64,000 nt of DNA from contig OX336343.1 in assembly GCA_946902875.1 (NCBI GenBank), positions 7,181,754-7,245,753 of the forward strand, given 5' to 3'. A model generated the notes under the pieces. That model saw only the letters and a list, made by a program, of their open reading frames with translations. It did not search any database and was not told the DNA's origin. Positions within the stretch are counted from its first letter, which is position 1. Every line of letters starts with the position of its first letter. This stretch comes from Nematopogon swammerdamellus (taxonomy: Eukaryota > Arthropoda > Insecta > Lepidoptera > Adelidae). Shown here piece by piece: positions 9,845-63,369 of the stretch. The position numbers were made by a program, and so were the translations under genes.

Positions 9845-10335
9845 CTTGAAGAAAGTAACTAAGGGCGAGGCCGAAGGCCGAACTATACTAAACGATATTA
9901 AAGATGTAATGGCGCGGCCCGAGGGCGGAAGAAGGTTTATCGTTTACCTGAATGCAGCTCGGCCTTCGCCCTCGCCCTTAGTTACTAACATTCATCAAGA
10001 AAGAATATTGTATACCTGAACGCAATTCGACCTTCGGCCATGCCTATAGTACATACTTACTTTCTTCGAGAGGGTATATCGTTTTCTTGAATGCAGCTCG
10101 GCCTTCGGCCTCGCCCATAGTTGCTTGCTTTGATCAAGAAGGTTTATCGTCTTCCAGAATACAGCTCGGCCTTTGGTCTCGCCTTTAGTTACATGCTTTC
10201 TTCGAAAATGTTTATTGCCTTTCTAACGCATCTCGGCCTTCGGCCTCGTCCTTTGTTACTTACTTTCTTCGAGAAGGTTTATCGTCTTCTTCGAGAATAA
10301 CGCTCGGCCTTCGACCTCGCTCTTAGTTTTCTTCA
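9845..10335. repeat. Array of the GGCCGAAGGCC repeat, mostly inverted
   Basis: One forward unit (AAGTAACTAAGGGCGAGGCC, GAAGGCCGA) at 9850-9890 is followed by about six units in the opposite orientation (GCAGCTCGGCCTTCGGCCTC, GCCCTTAGTTACTTACTTTC, TTCGAGAAGG) to 10335. The unit is about 67 bases and is the same as in the Helitron-embedded array at 39360-41130. The central GGCCGAAGGCC is itself self-complementary. The forward/inverted arrangement makes the region a large potential foldback. Confidence 0.85.
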
Positions 10336-10636: not shown

Positions 10637-10769
10637 GACCTAGAGAGATGATATTAGAATTACTATTCAGTTACTATTGAGAACCTAGAGAGATGATATT
10701 AGAATTACTATTCAGTTACTATTGAGAACCTAGAGATATGATATTAGAATTACTATTCAGTTACTATTT
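10637..10769. repeat. 45-bp minisatellite, left part (about 3 copies)
   Basis: Tandem copies of a 45-base unit containing GAACCTAGAGAGATGATATT and AGAATTACTATTCAGTTACT. The array is interrupted by a LINE insertion and resumes at 11864. Confidence 0.95.
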
Positions 10770-11863
10770 ATTTATTTAAATGTTTAAAGCTCACAGGAGC
10801 TGTACATTCACTCTTTACATAAATTTAATTAAAGTGTTATAATAACAATACAAACACATGATTACATATCTTATTACATACCTACATTGATTTTAAAAAT
10901 TTTAACAATATAATTATTTAAACATTTCTTTCATTCTTATTACTTAATACAAACTATAATTACAATTAACAACTACAAATTACAATTAAAATTATTAAAA
11001 AATTCTTCTAAATTATAAAAAGGCCGACTGAGTAAATAAATTTTCAATTCTTTTTGAAATTCTACAATTGTATTGCAATTCTTAATATTATCATTTAAGT
11101 TATTATATAATTTGATCGGTAAATAATTCGGTGAATTTTTGAACAGCGCACATTTAGGACCTGGTGGCCGAATATTATCTTTATTTCGCAAGTTATATCC
11201 AAACTCCCTAACAGTGTCGAATTGATCTTTGTTTTTATAAACTCCAATGCAAGTTACATATATATACAGTGATATAATAGTCATTATTTTTAAATTGACA
11301 AATAAAGGTCGACAAGTGTCATCATATTTTGCATCAGAAATAACTCTTATTGGTTTTTTTTGTAATATTAGAATGCTATGTTTTACATTGGCGTTATTGC
11401 CCCAGACTTCAAGTCCATACCGAAGAATGGATTCAATATAACTGAAGTATACTGTTCTAAGTGTGCTTTGATTAATGTCGTGTCTAATGGATCTAATTGC
11501 ATAGCAAGCTCTCGATAATTTATTCTCAATTTTTTCTATTTGTGCATGAAAAGACATTAATGAATCAAATGTTATACCTAGAAAATCAACAGTTTCACAT
11601 CTAAGTAGTTCTAAATTATTAGTGTCTGGTTCTACATATTGTTTATATTTTTTAAAAATAATATATTTTGACTTGTTCTTATTCAGCATTAAATTATTAC
11701 ATGTGAACCATCTTCCAAGTTCTTTTATACATAATTCTAGTTTATCAGTTAATTTATCTTTGTCATTTGAGACAACAATACCGCTCGTATCATCTGCAAA
11801 TAGGTATACATCATTAGACACATTATTTGCCAAATCATTAATAAATATTAAAAATAACAGTGG
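10770..11863 (-). mobile_element. 5'-truncated non-LTR retrotransposon in the 45-bp minisatellite
   Basis: The 3' end on the minus strand is at 10770 with an AATAAATA-type tail, and the 5' truncation point is at about 11863 inside the reverse transcriptase domain. Both junctions lie in the same minisatellite unit: left flank GTTACTATT, right flank TATTGAGAACC, so the target duplication is at most a few bases. The insertion postdates amplification of the array. The ORF is described separately. Confidence 0.9.
10973..11863 (-). pseudogene. LINE reverse transcriptase, C-terminal half (CR1/Jockey group)
   Basis: The fragment encodes the second half of a non-LTR retrotransposon reverse transcriptase, the enzyme that copies element RNA into DNA at a nicked target. 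The open frame runs from the truncation point at about 11863 to a stop near 10973, about 290 residues. It starts with the conserved PLLFLIFINDL segment just before the first methionine. The catalytic FADDT motif (two Asp residues) follows within about 15 residues of that methionine. Next come WFTCNNLMLNKNKSKYIIF (thumb-side RT motif), FLGITFD, and the C-terminal SILRYGLEVWGN and LQKKPIRVI segments typical of CR1/L2/Jockey-group elements. The N-terminal endonuclease and finger/palm motifs are absent, so it cannot be active. The uninterrupted frame points to recent insertion. Clade is family knowledge, not tested. Confidence 0.93.
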
Positions 11864-12257
11864 TATTGAGAACCTATAGATATGATATTATAATTACTAT
11901 TCAGTTACTATTGAGAACCTAGAGAGATGATATTAGAATTACTATGCAGTTACTATTGAGAACCTAGACACATGATATTAGAATTACTATTCAGTTACTA
12001 TTGAGAACCTAGAGAAATGATATTAGAATTACTATTCAGTTACTATTGAGAACCTATAGATATGATATTAGAATTACTATTCAGTTACTATTGAGAACCT
12101 AGAGAGATGATATTAGAATTACTATGCAGTTACTATTGAGAACCTAGAGAGATGATATTACAATTACTATGCAGTTACTATTGAGAACCTAGACATATGA
12201 TATTAGAATTACTATTCAGTTACTATTGATAACCTAGAGAAATGATATTAGAATTAC
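11864..12257. repeat. 45-bp minisatellite, right part (about 8-9 copies)
   Basis: Continuation of the array at 10637-10769. Variants carry CCTATAGATATG, CCTAGACACATG or CCTAGAGAAATG at the same position, and some have ATGCAGTTACT in place of ATTCAGTTACT. Variant units recur in a pattern, suggesting block duplication. Confidence 0.95.
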
Positions 12258-39359: not shown

Positions 39360-40250
39360 AAGTAAGTAACTAAAGGCGGAGCCGAAGGCGGATCTGCGCT
39401 CACGTAAACGATATTCTTTCTCGATGAAAGTAACTAAGGGCGAGGCGGAAGTCGGAGCTGACTTCAGGAAGAAAAAAAACCATTCTTTCTTGAATGAAGT
39501 AAGTAACTATGGGCAGGCCGCAGGCCGAGCTGCGTTCAGGAAGAAGCTAAACCATCTTGAGGAAAGTAAGTAACTAAGGCGAGGCCGAAGGCCGAGCTAC
39601 GTTCTGATAAATAATAAACCATCTCGGAGAAAGCGAGTAACTAGGGCGAGGCCGAAGGCCGAGCTGCGTTTAGGAAGAAGCTGAACCATCTTGAAGAAAG
39701 TAAGTAACTAAGGCGAGGCCGAAGGCCGAGCTACATTCTTATAAATAATAAACCATATCGAAGAAAGCAATTAACTAAGGGCGAGGCCGAAGGGCGAGCT
39801 GCGTTCAGAAAGAAGCTAAACCATATTGAAGAAAGTAAGTAACTAAGGCGAGGCCGAAGGCCGAGCTTCGTTCTGATAAATAATAAACCATCTCGAAGAA
39901 AGGAAGTAACTAAGGGCAAGGCCGAGGGCCGAGCTGCGTTCAGGAAAAAGCTAAACCATCTTGAAGAAAGTGAGTAACTAAGGCGAGGCCGAAGGCCGAG
40001 CTACATTCTGATAAATAATAAAACATCTTGAAGAAAGCAAGTAAATAAGGGCGAGGCCGAAGGCCGAGCTGCATTCGGGAAGAAGCTAAACCATCTCGAA
40101 GAAAGCAAGTAACTAAGGGCTAGGCCGAAGGCCGAGCTGCGTTCAGGAAGAAGGTAAACCTTCTTGAAGAAAGTAAGTAACTAAGGCGAGGCCGAAGGCC
40201 GAGCTGCGATCTGGATGAAGCTAAACCATCTCGAATAAAGTAGGTAACTA
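39360..40250. repeat. Forward array of the approx. 67-bp GGCCGAAGGCC unit (about 13 copies)
   Basis: Each unit has GTAACTAAGGGCGAGGCC, GAAGGCCGAGCTGCGTTC, AGGAAGAAGCTAAACCATC and TTGAAGAAAGTAA. Two unit subtypes partly alternate: one with GCTGCGTTCAGGAAGAAGC, the other with GCTACGTTCTGATAAATAAT. This implies amplification of a dimer of about 135 bases. Confidence 0.92.
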
Positions 40251-40254
40251 AGCG

Positions 40255-40799: not shown

Positions 40800-41130
40800 A
40801 GTAAACGATATTATATGCTATCGAAGAAAGGAAGTCATTTAAGGCGAGGCCCGAAGGCAGAAGAGGGTTTTTGGTTTACCTGAACGCAGCTCGGCCTTCG
40901 GCCTCGCCCTTAGTTACTTACTTTCTTCGAGAAGGTTTATCGTCTTCCTGAACGCAGCTCGGCCTTCGGCCTCGCCCTTAGTTACTTACTTTCTTCGTGA
41001 AGGTTTATTGTCTTCAAGGATGCAGCTGGGCCTTCGGCCTCGCCGTTAGTTGCTTACTTTATTTGAGAAGATTTATCGTTTACCTGAACGCAGCTCGGCC
41101 TTCGGCCTCGCCCTTAGTTACTTAGATTCT
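40800..41130. repeat. Inverted array of the GGCCGAAGGCC unit (about 4-5 copies)
   Basis: Units read CTGAACGCAGCTCGGCCTTC, GGCCTCGCCCTTAGTTACTT, ACTTTCTTCGAGAAGGTTTA, the reverse complement of the array at 39360-40250. Confidence 0.92.
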
Positions 41131-41178
41131 TCTTTGAAATACGAATTTCACGCGAGCGAAGCCGCGGGCAACAGCTAG

Positions 41179-56181: not shown

Positions 56182-56533
56182 GTCAGCCTCGGTAGCTCAG
56201 TAGTGCGGTCGCTCGTCTGTCGGTCGTGATCAGTACTTGGATGGGTGACCGCTCGACCGTTGGAGGCTGACCGTGATTCGGTTTATGTGTAAAACTGTAG
56301 GTCGCATCCCTTATTACCTTACTAGGTTTAACCCGCCCGGGTTGGTACCACCGCACTGAATTTAAGGTCTGTTGAAACGACTATGTAGGTAAATAGTTTG
56401 TGTTATTCGTCCAGTTCAGTGTTAATTATGTAGCCGGCACAACCGAAAGTAACCACTGACATGGCACCTAGTTCACCAAGGTGTATGTAGTAGGTGATGT
56501 AGCCAAAAGTGTCAGCTTTCATTTAAAAAAAAA
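56182..56533 (+). mobile_element. SINE-A copy 11 (full length)
   Basis: GTCAGCCTCGGTAGCTCAGT (A box), TGATCAGTACTTGGATGGGT, GACCGCTCGACCG (5S-like, upstream half lost), TTGGAGGCTGACCGTGATTC, core TACCTTACTAGGTTTAACCC, GGGTTGGTACCACCGCACTG, then CACTGACATGGCACCTAGTT, a shortened hairpin and GTGTCAGCTTTCATTT with an A tail. About 7% or more diverged from other copies by eye (rough). Confidence 0.92.
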
Positions 56534-57103
56534 CAACACCGATTACTCTATAAGGTATGTATTTATGTATGTAAGTTATTGTAATAAGAATTTAAATGCG
56601 CCCGACCTTACGAGACATCGAGGTGCATACGAGACATTAGCAGGCGTGTGGTGTGTCCGATGCTTGCTCTTGTGCTGAATGCTTCCTCTGTTCTCGCATA
56701 AGACGGCTCTTCACGTCCGGTCCCGCTCGACGTTGCCTCGCTCGCGCGTCCTGTTCAGCTGACGCTTTTGTTTCAATGTCCCATAATGTCTGACACCGCC
56801 TACACTTGCCCCCGCTTACACGGCGCAGCGCAACCTCTGCGATCACGTCTGCAGGCGTAACTTAAAATAATAGAAGAGTTATTCGCAGCCCCCCCTTCTA
56901 AACCGAATGCTTTTGGGCGTCGACGGCTCAACAATCCATGCTGACGGCGCCAAGTGTCTCGCGTATCAATAAAAAAATAAATAAAAAATAATCAAGCAGG
57001 TAAAAAGTCATGTGACTTCATTCTCATCATCATCATGTTCGGCATAAGATGGTACATGTATCCGTTGTATGTCGCGCATGTGGAATCGCGATTAGTCCGT
57101 ATT
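56534..57103. other. Unassigned DNA
   Basis: Moderately GC-rich at 56640-56850. No gene recognised. Confidence 0.4.
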
Positions 57104-59510
57104 TTTGGATCAGTCGGCCCACACGACCCAAGAGAATTACTCACATGACACCTAGTTCCGACAGGACATAGGCGTATTTGGCTAACATCACGTGTGCAGT
57201 AATTAATGTAATTGGCTAACATCACGTGCGCAGTAACTGATGTATTTGGGTAACATCACGTGCGCAGTAAGTGATGTTTTTGGCTAACATCTCGTGTGCA
57301 TTATGTGATGTAATTGACTAATATCACGTGCGCAGTAAGTGATGTAATTGGCTAATATCACGTGTCCAGTAAATGTTGTAATTGGTTAACATCAAGTGTG
57401 CAGTAAGTGATGTAATTGGCTAACATCAAGTGTGCATTGTGTGATGTAATTTGCTAATATCACGTGTCCAGTAAATGTTGTAATTGGCTAACATCAAGTG
57501 TGCATTGTGTGATGTAATTTGCTAATATCACGTGTCCAGTAAATGTTGTAATTGGCTAACATCAAGTGTGCATTGTGTGATATAATTTGCTAATATCACG
57601 TGTCCAGTAAATGTTGTAATTGGCTAACATCAAATGTGCATTGTGTGATGTAATTTGCTTATATCACGTGCGCAGTAAGTGATGTAATTGGTTAATATCA
57701 CGTGCGCAGTAAGTGATGTAATTGGCTAATATCACGTGTGCATTATGTGATGTAATTGGATAATATCACGTGACCAGTAAATGTTGTAATTAACTAACAT
57801 CAAGTGTGCAGTAAGTGATGTAATTGGGTAACATCGCGTGTGCATTATGTGATGTAATTGGTTAATATCATGTGCGCAGTAAGTGATGTAATTGGCTAAT
57901 ATCACGTGTGCATTATGTGATGTAATTGGATAATATCACATGTCCAGTAAATGTTGTAATTGGCTAACATCAAGTGCGCAGTAAGTAATGTAATTGGCTA
58001 ATATCACGTGTGCATTATGTGATGTAATTGACTAATATCACGTGCGCAGTAAGTGATGTAATTGGCTAATATCACGTGTCCAGTAAATGTTGTAATTGGC
58101 TAACATCAAGTGTGCAGTAAGTGATGTAATTGGCTAACATCAAGTGTGCATTGTGTGATGTAATTTGCTAATATCACGTGTCCAGTAAATGTTGTAATTG
58201 GCTAACATCGCGTGTGCATTATGTTATGTAATTGACTAATATCACGTGCGCAGTAAGTGATGTAATTGGCTAATATCACGTGTCCAGTAAATGTTGTAAT
58301 TGGCTAACATCAAGTGTGCAGTAAGTGATGTAATTGGCTAACATCAAGTGTGCATTGTGTGATGTAATTTGCTAATATCACGTGTCCAGTAAATGTTGTA
58401 ATTGGGTAACATCGCGTGTGCATTATGTGATGTAATTGGTTAATATCACGTGCGCAGTAAGTGATGTAATTGGCTAATATCACGTGTGCATTATGTGATG
58501 TAATTGGATAATATCACGTGACCAGTAAATGTTGTAATTACCTAACATCAAGTGTGCAGTAAGTGATGTAATTGGGTAACATCGCGTGTGCATTATGTGA
58601 TGTAATTGGTTAATATCATGTGCGCAGTAAGTGATGTAATTGGCTAATATCACGTGTGCATTATGTGATGTAATTGGATAATATCACATGTCCAGTAAAT
58701 GTTGTAATTGGCTAACATCAAGTGCGCAGTAAGTAATGTAATTGGCTAATATCACGTGTGCATTATGTGATGTAATTGGATAATATCACGTGTCCAGTAA
58801 ATGTTGTAATTGGCTAACATCAAGTGCGCAGTAAGTGATGTAATTGGCTAATATCACGTGCGCAGTAAGTGATGTAATTGGCTAATATCACGTATGCATT
58901 ATGTGATGTTATTGGATAATATCACGTGTCCAGTAAATGTTGTAATTGGCTAACATCAAGTGTGCAGTAAGTGATGTAATTGGATAATATCACGTGTCCA
59001 GTAAATGTTGTAATTGGCTAACATCAAGTGCGCAGTAAGTGATGTAATTGGCTAATATCACGTGCGCAGTAAGTGATGTAATTGGCTAATATCACGTATG
59101 CATTATGTGATGTTATTGGATAATATCACGTGTCCAGTAAATGTTGTAATTGGCTAACATCAAGTGTGCAGTAAGTGATGTAATTGGCTAATATCACGTG
59201 TCCAGTAAATGTTGTAATTGGCTAACATCAAGCGTGCAGTAAGTGATGTAATTGGCTAATATCACGTGTCCAGTAAATGTTGTAATTGGCTAACATCAAG
59301 TGTGCAGTAAGTGATGTAATTGGCTAATATCACGTGTCCAGTAAATGTTGTAATTGGCTAACATCAAGTGTGCAGTAAGTGATGTAATTGGCTAATATCA
59401 CGTGTCCAGTAAATGTTGTAATTGGCTAACATCAAGCGTGCAGTAAGTGATGTAATTGGCTAACATCAAGTGTGCAAGTTTTATTTAGGGAACGCTTCAA
59501 TTTAGCAACA
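57104..59510 (+). mobile_element. SINE-A copy 12 with its 3' hairpin expanded into a satellite
   Basis: Upstream flank 57104-57178 aligns with the SINE-A 3' body: ATCAGTCGGCCCACACGACC, CACATGACACCTAGTTCC, GGACATAGG. It leads straight into GGCTAACATCACG, the start of the array, at the position where SINE-A has GGCTGACATCACG. After the last unit (about 59465) the text GTGTGCAAGTTTTATTTA resembles the SINE end GTGTCAGTTTCCATAAAA. The array therefore lies in place within a SINE-A copy. SINE copies do not normally contain more than one hairpin unit. Confidence 0.7.
57179..59480. repeat. 34-bp satellite, about 67 monomers, higher-order structure
   Basis: Monomer: GGCTAACATCACGTGTGCAG, TAAGTGATGTAATT. 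Each preserves inverted arms ACATCAC and GTGATGT in its best copies. Variants alternate: AATATCACGTGTCCAGTAAA with TGTTGTAATT, and TAACATCAAGTGTGCAGTAA with GTGATGTAATT. A long block at about 57770-58030 recurs at about 58519-58770, shifted by 748 bases (22 monomers). Many monomers include CACGTG, and nearly all include ATTGG. Confidence 0.97.
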
Positions 59511-60018
59511 TCAATATTGAAGATTCAACATTTGTGTGCACTTGGCGACAATAACAAATCTATCCTTTTGGATTCTCTGTCCGCAAGATATGATAGAGGA
59601 CGACAGCGGAAGGCGAAAAGATAAATCAGAGGCGCTCCATCTCCCGGTCTCACTCGCGATATTTTTGTACAAAACGACAGTTGAGTATCGTTTTAAGGTG
59701 GAGTGGCTACGAGAAGGAGACGTCGTCGTGCGGTGAGAGGTGGTATTTGGACTTGTGAAATATCGCTATAGGTCGTATGCTTAAAGAAATTATGTAATTA
59801 TCATGGTTTGATGACTTTCACACAAAGGCTTAATACAGATTTCTCTGTTTCTTTATCTTGCTTTCTTGTGCACACATTTTTATTGGGCTCACTTTGGTGC
59901 GGTTGGGTTCAGTTGGATTTGGTTATATTGGTTTGGTTTTCGTTGGGTTCGATTGGGTTATCAACCCAATCGAACGACATGAATGACATGACTTAAATAC
60001 TTCCATACAAATGTAATT
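59511..60018. other. Unassigned DNA
   Basis: Open frame 59536-59736 has no motif. GGTTGGGTTCAGTTGGATTT-type GT-rich text at 59895-59970. No gene recognised. Confidence 0.4.
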
Positions 60019-60119
60019 GGTGCACTGACGTGGCACCAGGTTCATCCGGTGTTATGGGCTGACATCAGGGATGTTGTAGTTGATGTAGCCAACCGTGTCA
60101 GTTTCCATAAAAAAAAAAA
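60019..60119 (+). mobile_element. SINE-A copy 13 (3' end only)
   Basis: TGCACTGACGTGGCACCAGG, TTCATCCGGTGTTATGGGCT, GACATCAGGGATGTTGTAGT, TGATGTAGCC, AACCGTGTCAGTTTCCATAA and an A tail. Preserves the single 34-nt hairpin. Confidence 0.9.
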
Positions 60120-62469: not shown

Positions 62470-62741
62470 CATTACCGCCGGCGGCGGCAGGAGGCAGGCC
62501 CCCAAGCGCGTCGGCGGCGCCGGCGGGTGCAGGCCGTGGCTACGGAGCTCCCCGAGACGACGCGAGGCAAGCTACGAGCGATTGGTGGTCGACTAGACTC
62601 GTAGTCCAGCACGCGTTTTATTATTATTATAAAAACCTTTTCGCACTACTTCGCCTCATACGCCCATGTCGTAGCAGTGCTACGAACACCCCGTCTGCTC
62701 TTGTCGTAGCACTGCTACGCGGCGTAGCGTACGAACTAGCC
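62470..62741. promoter_or_regulatory. CpG-rich block and two CGTAGCA-N-TGCTACG hairpins
   Basis: 62470-62600 is strongly CpG-rich (CCGCCGGCGGCGGCAGG). Then CGTAGCAGTGCTACG at 62670-62684 and CGTAGCACTGCTACG at 62705-62719 are near-perfect short dyads 35 bases apart, followed by GGCGTAGCGTACGAAC. They may be the end of an unrecognised DNA transposon. No ORF motif. Confidence 0.35.
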
Positions 62742-63120
62742 TTTTTTTTCATGAAAACTGACATGGTTTGGCTACATCACCTACAACATCCGTGATGTCA
62801 GCCCATAATACCGGGTGAACTAGGTGCCATGTCAGTGCTTCCCTTCGGCCGTGCCGTCTACACTGAACTGGACGGAAAACACCAACTATTCACATAGCCG
62901 TTTCGACCAAAGTTTCATTCAGTGGGGTGGTAACAACCCGGGCGGGATAAGCCCTACCACCTAGTAAGGTAAGAAGGGAAGGGACCCACAGTTTTACGTG
63001 GAATCCGAACCACGGTCAGCCGCCATCGGTCGAGCGGTCACCCATCCAAGTACTGACCGCGCTCAGGGTTGCTTAACAACAGTCGACCGACCGCAGCACC
63101 ACTGAGCTACCAAGGCTGAC
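62742..63120 (-). mobile_element. SINE-A reference copy (full length): chimeric tRNA/5S head
   Basis: On the minus strand from 63120: GTCAGCCTTGGTAGCTCAGT, GGT (tRNA-like A box, 63112-63099). Next GTTAAGCAACCCTGAGCGCG, GTCAGTACTTGGATGGGTGA, CCGC (63077-63034) closely follows the 5S rRNA internal control region (A box, intermediate element, C box). Then CGTGGTTCGGATTCCACG (B box in a perfect hairpin), the core (GGTCCCTTCCCTTCTTACC, TTACTAGGTGGTAGGG, TTACCACC), the CAGTTCAGTGTAGACGGCAC region, the 34-nt hairpin GGGCTGACATCACGGATGTT, GTAGGTGATGTAGCC, and ATGTCAGTTTTCATGAAAAA. GTCAGCC at the 5' end is complementary to GGCTGAC just before the B box, enclosing the 5S part. Non-coding. Confidence 0.93.
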
Positions 63121-63369
63121 AAAAAATCCTACGCCCCACAAATGATTGGCTAGCATTATATCATGTGGTATCTTCGTTAGCTATGCAATACCTTAAAATG
63201 TTGGCTTTAATTGAATATTAAAAAAATTAAAGCAACCTTTAAAATGTTCGTAATTCATACGTACACCGCTGTTGTATGAACCAAAAGATACGAGTAGGCT
63301 TAACTCTGGAACGCTCTACCGGCCCACATATTTCCCCCCAAGTATAGAGTCGGGTCCTTCAAGATGAGG
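63121..63369. other. Unassigned DNA
   Basis: Nothing recognised. Confidence 0.4.

What the first reader, a model, noticed from the sequence alone, without database searches (positions are those of the whole stretch)
57104..59510. A 34-bp satellite that appears to have grown from the 3' hairpin of a SINE
Seen: the SINE-A 3' body contains one 34-nt imperfect hairpin (GGCTGACATCACGGATGTTG, TAGGTGATGTAGCC). The satellite monomer (GGCTAACATCACGTGTGCAG, TAAGTGATGTAATT) is also 34 nt and matches it at about two thirds of positions without gaps, including both hairpin arms. The array is preceded by 75 bases that align to the SINE body directly upstream of the hairpin and is followed by text resembling the SINE end. 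Inference: replication slippage or unequal exchange expanded a single hairpin to about 67 copies within one SINE insertion. Satellites born from SINEs or MITEs are known in principle, but birth from exactly one structural unit of a SINE is unusual.
Basis: partly seen in the sequence, partly recalled or inferred. Interest (0 to 1): 0.85.

Follow-up and report, generated by a model that had tools for sequence, protein, structure and literature searches.

The report
Minisatellite born inside a SINE
A run of 67 copies of a 34-base repeat grew out of one short piece near the end of an old mobile element (a SINE), and other copies of the same element in this genome show smaller versions of the same growth, a clear case of something already known from other animals.

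Summary
The array is real: 67 full 34-bp monomers without an indel (57180-59457) plus a 19-bp stub. The DNA upstream (57082-57179) and monomer 1 form one continuous SINE-A fragment, 100 columns without a gap, 51.4 bits. Two claims fail: the downstream flank is single-copy DNA without SINE signal, and the unit is not strictly one structural hairpin (1 of 67 monomers keeps all 7 arm pairs; L094 has another period). Best reading: local duplication of the hairpin segment in an old SINE copy, then block-wise growth in place, with the SINE's 3' end lost. Tandem repeats born from SINEs are known (Alu, squamate SINEs), so this is a new, well-resolved member of a known kind. My census used only hairpin patterns and one genome.

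The parts
57082..57179 (+). SINE-A body (older subfamily) directly upstream of the array
   Evidence: Young profile 57082-57210, old profile 57111-57209; profile of 7 window copies 57088-57209, E=1.9e-8; 100 columns without a gap, 51.4 bits
57180..57315 (+). Monomers 1-4: the SINE-side edge, each 2 or 3 bases from its nearest other monomer
   Evidence: monomer 1 is colinear with the SINE hairpin
57316..59457 (+). Monomers 5-67: 56 of 63 have an identical partner, 5 a one-off partner, 2 a two-off partner; multi-monomer block duplications
   Evidence: blocks 16-25 and 38-47 differ at 1 of 340 bases, 48-54 and 54-60 (sharing monomer 54) at 1 of 238, 26-30 and 32-36 at 0 of 170
59458..59476 (+). 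19-bp stub of monomer 68 where the array breaks off
   Evidence: Exact match to 11 earlier places in the array, then unrelated sequence
59477..59640 (.). Downstream flank: no SINE signal, single-copy
56366..56535 (+). Separate young SINE-A copy upstream, with its own tail
   Evidence: Young profile 106.8 bits; alignment
60018..60119 (+). Separate SINE-A copy downstream, lacking its 5' part, one normal hairpin
   Evidence: Young profile 60022-60119, 106.1 bits; alignment

Best explanation
The array grew inside an old copy of a high-copy SINE. The segment of about 34 bp that carries the 3' hairpin was duplicated once, by slippage or unequal exchange, and further exchange then copied blocks of several monomers until there were 67. 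The SINE's 3' end was lost or decayed, so the array breaks off inside a monomer against single-copy DNA. Shown: SINE body and first monomer are one continuous piece; the monomer is homologous to the SINE hairpin segment; block duplications; three other SINE copies with 3, 5 and 6 units. Inferred: the first duplication step and its cause, and the loss of the 3' end. The confidence is for SINE origin and growth in place; it does not cover how the very first duplication arose, on which the first and third rivals differ.
For: Continuity of SINE body and monomer 1: 51.4 bits without a gap from a profile that did not contain the array; E=1.9e-8 from 7 window copies; shuffle control. Monomer-hairpin homology. 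Other tandem copies: L043 and L049, L094, each with repeated same-strand profile hits. Separate expansions: array monomers are 0.849 identical to each other but 0.704 to L043 units and 0.691 to L049 units. L114, a relative of the flank, has one unit. Growth in place. The array matches only this locus genome-wide (the tool warns that common words are skipped).
Against: No SINE end follows the array, so the SINE is shown on one side only. Flanking direct repeats at a 34-base shift do not stand out where the units join. Array monomers are on average only 0.671 identical to the older hairpin consensus. The 19 copies of the older profile were chosen by eye after I had seen the flank.
Confidence: 0.85

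Rival explanations
1. The first few tandem units were made on the RNA or cDNA side: a SINE transcript, or template switching by the LINE reverse transcriptase during insertion, delivered a copy that already held several units, and DNA exchange only enlarged it later.
For: L043 begins at its first hairpin and holds 5 units, a tail and an A-run, as a 5'-truncated insertion would. L049 holds 3 units between body and tail.
Against: No two of the four loci share a unit set; units are more alike within a locus than between loci (L094 not included there). No convincing target-site duplication for L043: the best candidate is 8 bases and lies 23 bases beyond the A-run.
Confidence: 0.25
2. The array is an unrelated satellite that a SINE fragment happens to abut.
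For: The downstream side has no SINE sequence. Monomer identity to the hairpin is only about two thirds.
Against: The SINE alignment runs without a gap through the junction into monomer 1 in register. 40 profile hits on the array against 0 of 200 permuted arrays. Three other SINE copies hold tandem units of the same segment.
Confidence: 0.03
3. The ancestral SINE had several hairpins, and single-hairpin copies are contractions.
For: Some older copies carry TGATGTAAT just before the hairpin, which looks like the end of a further unit.
Against: Those copies were picked by patterns that ask for that sequence. At 12 other SINE-A places in the window each profile gives at most one hit. Two strict tandem patterns found only two further tandem loci, L043 and L094, against 63,008 places matching a looser SINE-A pattern; the strict patterns miss diverged copies.
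Confidence: 0.1

Closest known systems
Minisatellites derived from human Alu elements (Jurka and Gentles 2006; Ahmed and Liang 2012, PMC3389668)
   Same: A short part of a SINE becomes a tandem array in place. PMC3389668 reports 17 repeats of 52 bp from an AluJo, and in 5 chosen arrays units that match each other better than the rest of the genome (passages read).
   Different: Other SINE and host; here 67 units of 34 bp over a hairpin segment, and flanking direct repeats were not shown. Jurka and Gentles was not read, only seen as cited in PMC3389668 and PMC9659126.
SINE-derived satellites (sSats) of squamate reptiles (PMC10702118)
   Same: Tandem repeats from portions of SINEs, few to hundreds of units, SINE sequence at the ends, mostly independent origins (parts 1 and 4 of 5 and passages read).
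   Different: Their units are about 70 to 290 nt and favour subtelomeric places; here 34 or about 31 bp, and the window array lies near 7.24 Mb of a 24.56-Mb contig.
HaSE3, PxSE4 and PxSE5, 5S rRNA-derived SINEs of Lepidoptera (PMC3272025, PMC8010984; passages read)
   Same: The SINE-A copy with its hairpin at 62770 carries a 5S-like promoter stretch (by eye, from recall).
   Different: PxSE4 has a (TGA)n tail and PxSE5 (ATGT)n; HaSE3 shares its 3' end with HaRTE1.1, which ends in TGA repeats. SINE-A ends in an A-run. 'Tandem' and 'hairpin' have 0 occurrences in both main texts.

Membership tests
SINE-derived tandem repeat (Alu minisatellite / sSat kind) | Monomer homologous to a part of a SINE of the same genome | tested here: met
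SINE-derived tandem repeat (Alu minisatellite / sSat kind) | SINE sequence next to the array on the 5' side | tested here: met
SINE-derived tandem repeat (Alu minisatellite / sSat kind) | SINE sequence next to the array on the 3' side | tested here: not met
   for the window array; a SINE tail is seen after the units in L043 and L049
SINE-derived tandem repeat (Alu minisatellite / sSat kind) | Similar expansions at other copies of the SINE | tested here: met
   L043, L049, L094
SINE-derived tandem repeat (Alu minisatellite / sSat kind) | Short direct repeats flanking the expanded segment | tested here: inconclusive
   at shift 34 the best 9-base match is 6 of 9 in the older consensus (other shifts reach 7), and 7 of 9 in the young one, tied for best but not at the unit junction; no shuffle control was run
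Squamate sSat in the strict sense | Unit of about 70 to 290 nt | tested here: not met
   34 bp here, about 31 bp in L094
Squamate sSat in the strict sense | Subtelomeric preference | tested here: inconclusive
   The one long array lies near 7.24 of 24.56 Mb of C11; one locus cannot show a preference
5S rRNA-derived SINE | 5S head with boxes A, IE, C | tested here: inconclusive
   Stretch at 63034-63076 minus strand seen by eye, motif recalled; no 5S hit by Rfam in 62700-63250

The most novel reading that the evidence does not exclude
The 3' hairpin segment of this SINE family is a recurrent seed of minisatellites: the same short segment has been expanded independently at four or more copies, with two different periods (34 and about 31 bp), so that a SINE family scattered over a genome works as a reservoir of pre-placed satellite starters.
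Probability: 0.45. Interest if true: 0.5.

Novelty: new member of a known kind. Interest (0 to 1): 0.4.

Why it matters
How satellites start is usually inferred from finished arrays. Here one genome holds single-unit copies, copies with 3, 5 and 6 units and one with 67, all in the same SINE family, so first steps and later growth can be compared directly. It also suggests that the period is not fixed by the hairpin.

Tried and rejected
Rejected: a SINE end after the array. Not supported: a hairpin kept intact in the array (all 7 Watson-Crick arm pairs in 1 of 67, six in 39, five in 7, four in 20). Not shown: slippage on direct repeats 34 bases apart (two consensuses, no shuffles; the young one ties for best at shift 34, but not at the unit junction). 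Not useful: protein search with the reverse-transcriptase ORF at 10976-11887 to name the host (56 hits, no organism names); Rfam on the window (1 tRNA) and on 62700-63250.

Ascertainment: I searched only with hairpin patterns, so I cannot say whether other parts of the SINE expand as often. Of 67 loci fetched by place (16, 40, 7, 3), 65 give a SINE profile hit and 2 do not (L042, L058); 30 of the 67 had gone into the profiles. Three show tandem hairpin hits on one strand: L043, L049, L094. L061 has a second hairpin in a neighbouring SINE fragment 69 bases on, and L078 a possible 22-bp partial repeat, by eye. L052 and L053 are not in that count: flank of the window array and a wider cut of L043. 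The 40 loci came from the first 100 listed of 63,008 matches; I left out most rows of the TTATG type. The older profile uses 19 and the young one 11 of those 40, chosen by eye; 10 were left out.

Full report
What is there. The window is G000:C11:7181754-7245753 of a 699-Mb, 39-contig genome, not named; from recall of the SINE type I think it a moth or butterfly, but no call shows this. TRF places a tandem array at 57174-59476 with a 68-bp dimer period and no indels. Read in 34-bp register from 57180 it holds 67 full monomers of 28 types, then a 19-bp stub.

The SINE. SINE-A occurs at 12 further places in the window by profile. A loose pattern over the sequence before and into the hairpin, 3 mismatches allowed, matches 63,008 places in the genome, control 57, a rough measure of copy number. 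Two groups are visible: young copies (…GGTGTTATGGGCTGACATCACGGATGTTGTAGGTGATGTAGCCAACCGTGTCAG…) and older ones (…CACCTAGTTCCGACAGGAACATGATGTAATGGGCTGACATCACGGGTGTAGCAGGTGATGTAGCC…). The pre-hairpin letters of the older consensus are biased by the pattern that picked those copies.

The 5' junction. A profile of 7 window copies, array not used, hits 57088-57209 at E=1.9e-8. A profile of 19 older copies aligns 100 columns without a gap across the junction at 51.4 bits, against 45.3 for the young profile; the 19 were chosen by eye from 40 loci after I had seen the flank, so the 7-copy profile is the cleaner test. The flank without any monomer scores 20.3 bits, the best of 1000 shuffles 8.0. A search with the flank plus 61 bases of array gave 40 matches: 37 at the query or in this array, and 3 elsewhere that cover only the body. 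Those three were fetched: L112 has the body and a deletion over the hairpin start, L113 breaks off after the body, and L114 runs on through one unit to a tail-like end. None of the three has an array.

The 3' junction. The array stops inside a monomer. 59477-59640 aligns to seven SINE references no better than shuffles, gives no profile hit, and 59458-59900 finds only itself in the genome. The SINE end was lost, or has decayed beyond recognition.

Growth inside the array. Monomers 1-4, next to the SINE body, are 2 or 3 bases from their nearest other monomer; of the other 63, 56 have an identical partner, 5 differ by one base and 2 by two. Blocks 16-25 and 38-47 differ at 1 of 340 bases, 48-54 and 54-60 at 1 of 238, 26-30 and 32-36 at 0 of 170. 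This is what unequal exchange or similar block copying within the array would leave. The array DNA has no match elsewhere in the genome (the tool warns that common words are skipped).

Other tandem copies. The junction pattern TGATGTANNNNGSTNAYATCA has 41 exact matches, control 0: 25 in this array, 16 elsewhere. Of the 16, fetched, two are tandem: L043, 5 units of 34 bp, then the SINE tail and an A-run; and L049, SINE body, units of 34, 34 and 42 bp, then the start of the SINE tail. A stricter pattern over loop and junction, 3 mismatches, has 7 matches, control 0: 4 in L043, 1 in L048 (not tandem) and 2 at a new place, L094: a SINE body, six units of about 31 bp and an A-run. A pattern for the 31-bp junction has 11 matches, control 0: 4 in L094 and 7 elsewhere, none of the 7 tandem; L095, L098, L099 and L101 among them look like internal deletions in the same part of the SINE. 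The two strict patterns found neither the window array nor L049, so they miss diverged copies and the true number of tandem loci is open. Re-scanning the 67 fetched loci with both profiles confirmed repeated same-strand hairpin hits in L043, L049 and L094; L061 has a second hairpin in a neighbouring SINE fragment.

Independence and the hairpin. Units are more alike within a locus (array 0.849, L043 0.897, L049 0.824 from one pair) than between loci (array to L043 0.704, array to L049 0.691, L043 to L049 0.753), so these expansions look separate; L094, with another period, was not in that comparison. The SINE consensus hairpins have 7 of 7 arm pairs; in the array 1 of 67 monomers keeps seven, 39 six, 7 five and 20 four, Watson-Crick pairs only. 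L094's unit is three bases short in or beside the right arm. So the copied segment includes the hairpin, but the unit's ends seem set by where the duplication joined. A role of the hairpin in starting it is possible and not shown. Direct repeats 34 bases apart exist (TGGTGTA and TGATGTA, the first with a letter I set), but other shifts do as well in the older consensus, and in the young one the best match at 34, tied for first, lies elsewhere.

What is known. A review and a genome survey list minisatellites from Alu and other SINEs (PMC9659126 and PMC3389668; passages read), including 17 units of 52 bp in an AluJo. A 2023 paper describes SINE-derived satellites in squamates with units of about 70 to 290 nt and says it is uncertain whether they are restricted to squamates (PMC10702118; parts 1 and 4 of 5 and passages read). 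Five answered library searches listed no title or abstract start that describes a satellite grown from an insect SINE. I did not open most of those papers, among them a grasshopper study of transposable elements and satellites (PMC7754599), so this is a weak negative.

Verdict. The case is a new member of a known kind with unusually complete intermediates in one genome; the claims about the 3' side and about one exact structural unit do not stand.

Noticed in passing
window 39428-40252, 40879-41132 and 9929-10328: Tandem arrays with the same 67- or 68-bp unit family (GCTCGGCCTTCGGCCTCGCC or its complement); the first two are in opposite orientation about 630 bases apart (by eye).
   Followed up: no
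window 10638-10768 and 11864-12257: The same 45-bp tandem unit occurs in two arrays about 1.1 kb apart, on either side of a reverse-transcriptase-like ORF at 10973-11887.
   Followed up: no
window 63000-63112, minus strand (SINE copy with hairpin at 62770): The SINE head looks like a 5S rRNA promoter stretch (63034-63076) set between tRNA-like A and B boxes (63099-63112, 63000-63011); motifs recalled, coordinates; Rfam gave no 5S hit.
   Followed up: partly
L095, L098, L099, L101: SINE-A copies with apparent internal deletions that join the body to the pre-hairpin stretch, so this part of the SINE also shrinks. L099 and L101 share flanks on two contigs, one of them only 21 kb long.
   Followed up: partly
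L036, L046, L047: Three places share the same SINE and 3' flank (two about 3 kb apart on C22, one on C1), so this SINE may sit inside a larger repeated element.
   Followed up: no
L078 (C29:6273370-6273820): A possible 22-bp partial tandem repeat of the hairpin's left half, seen by eye.
   Followed up: no
L049 and L055: Hairpin end reads TGATGTAATGTAGCC instead of TGATGTAGCC, a small local repeat where the units end.
   Followed up: no
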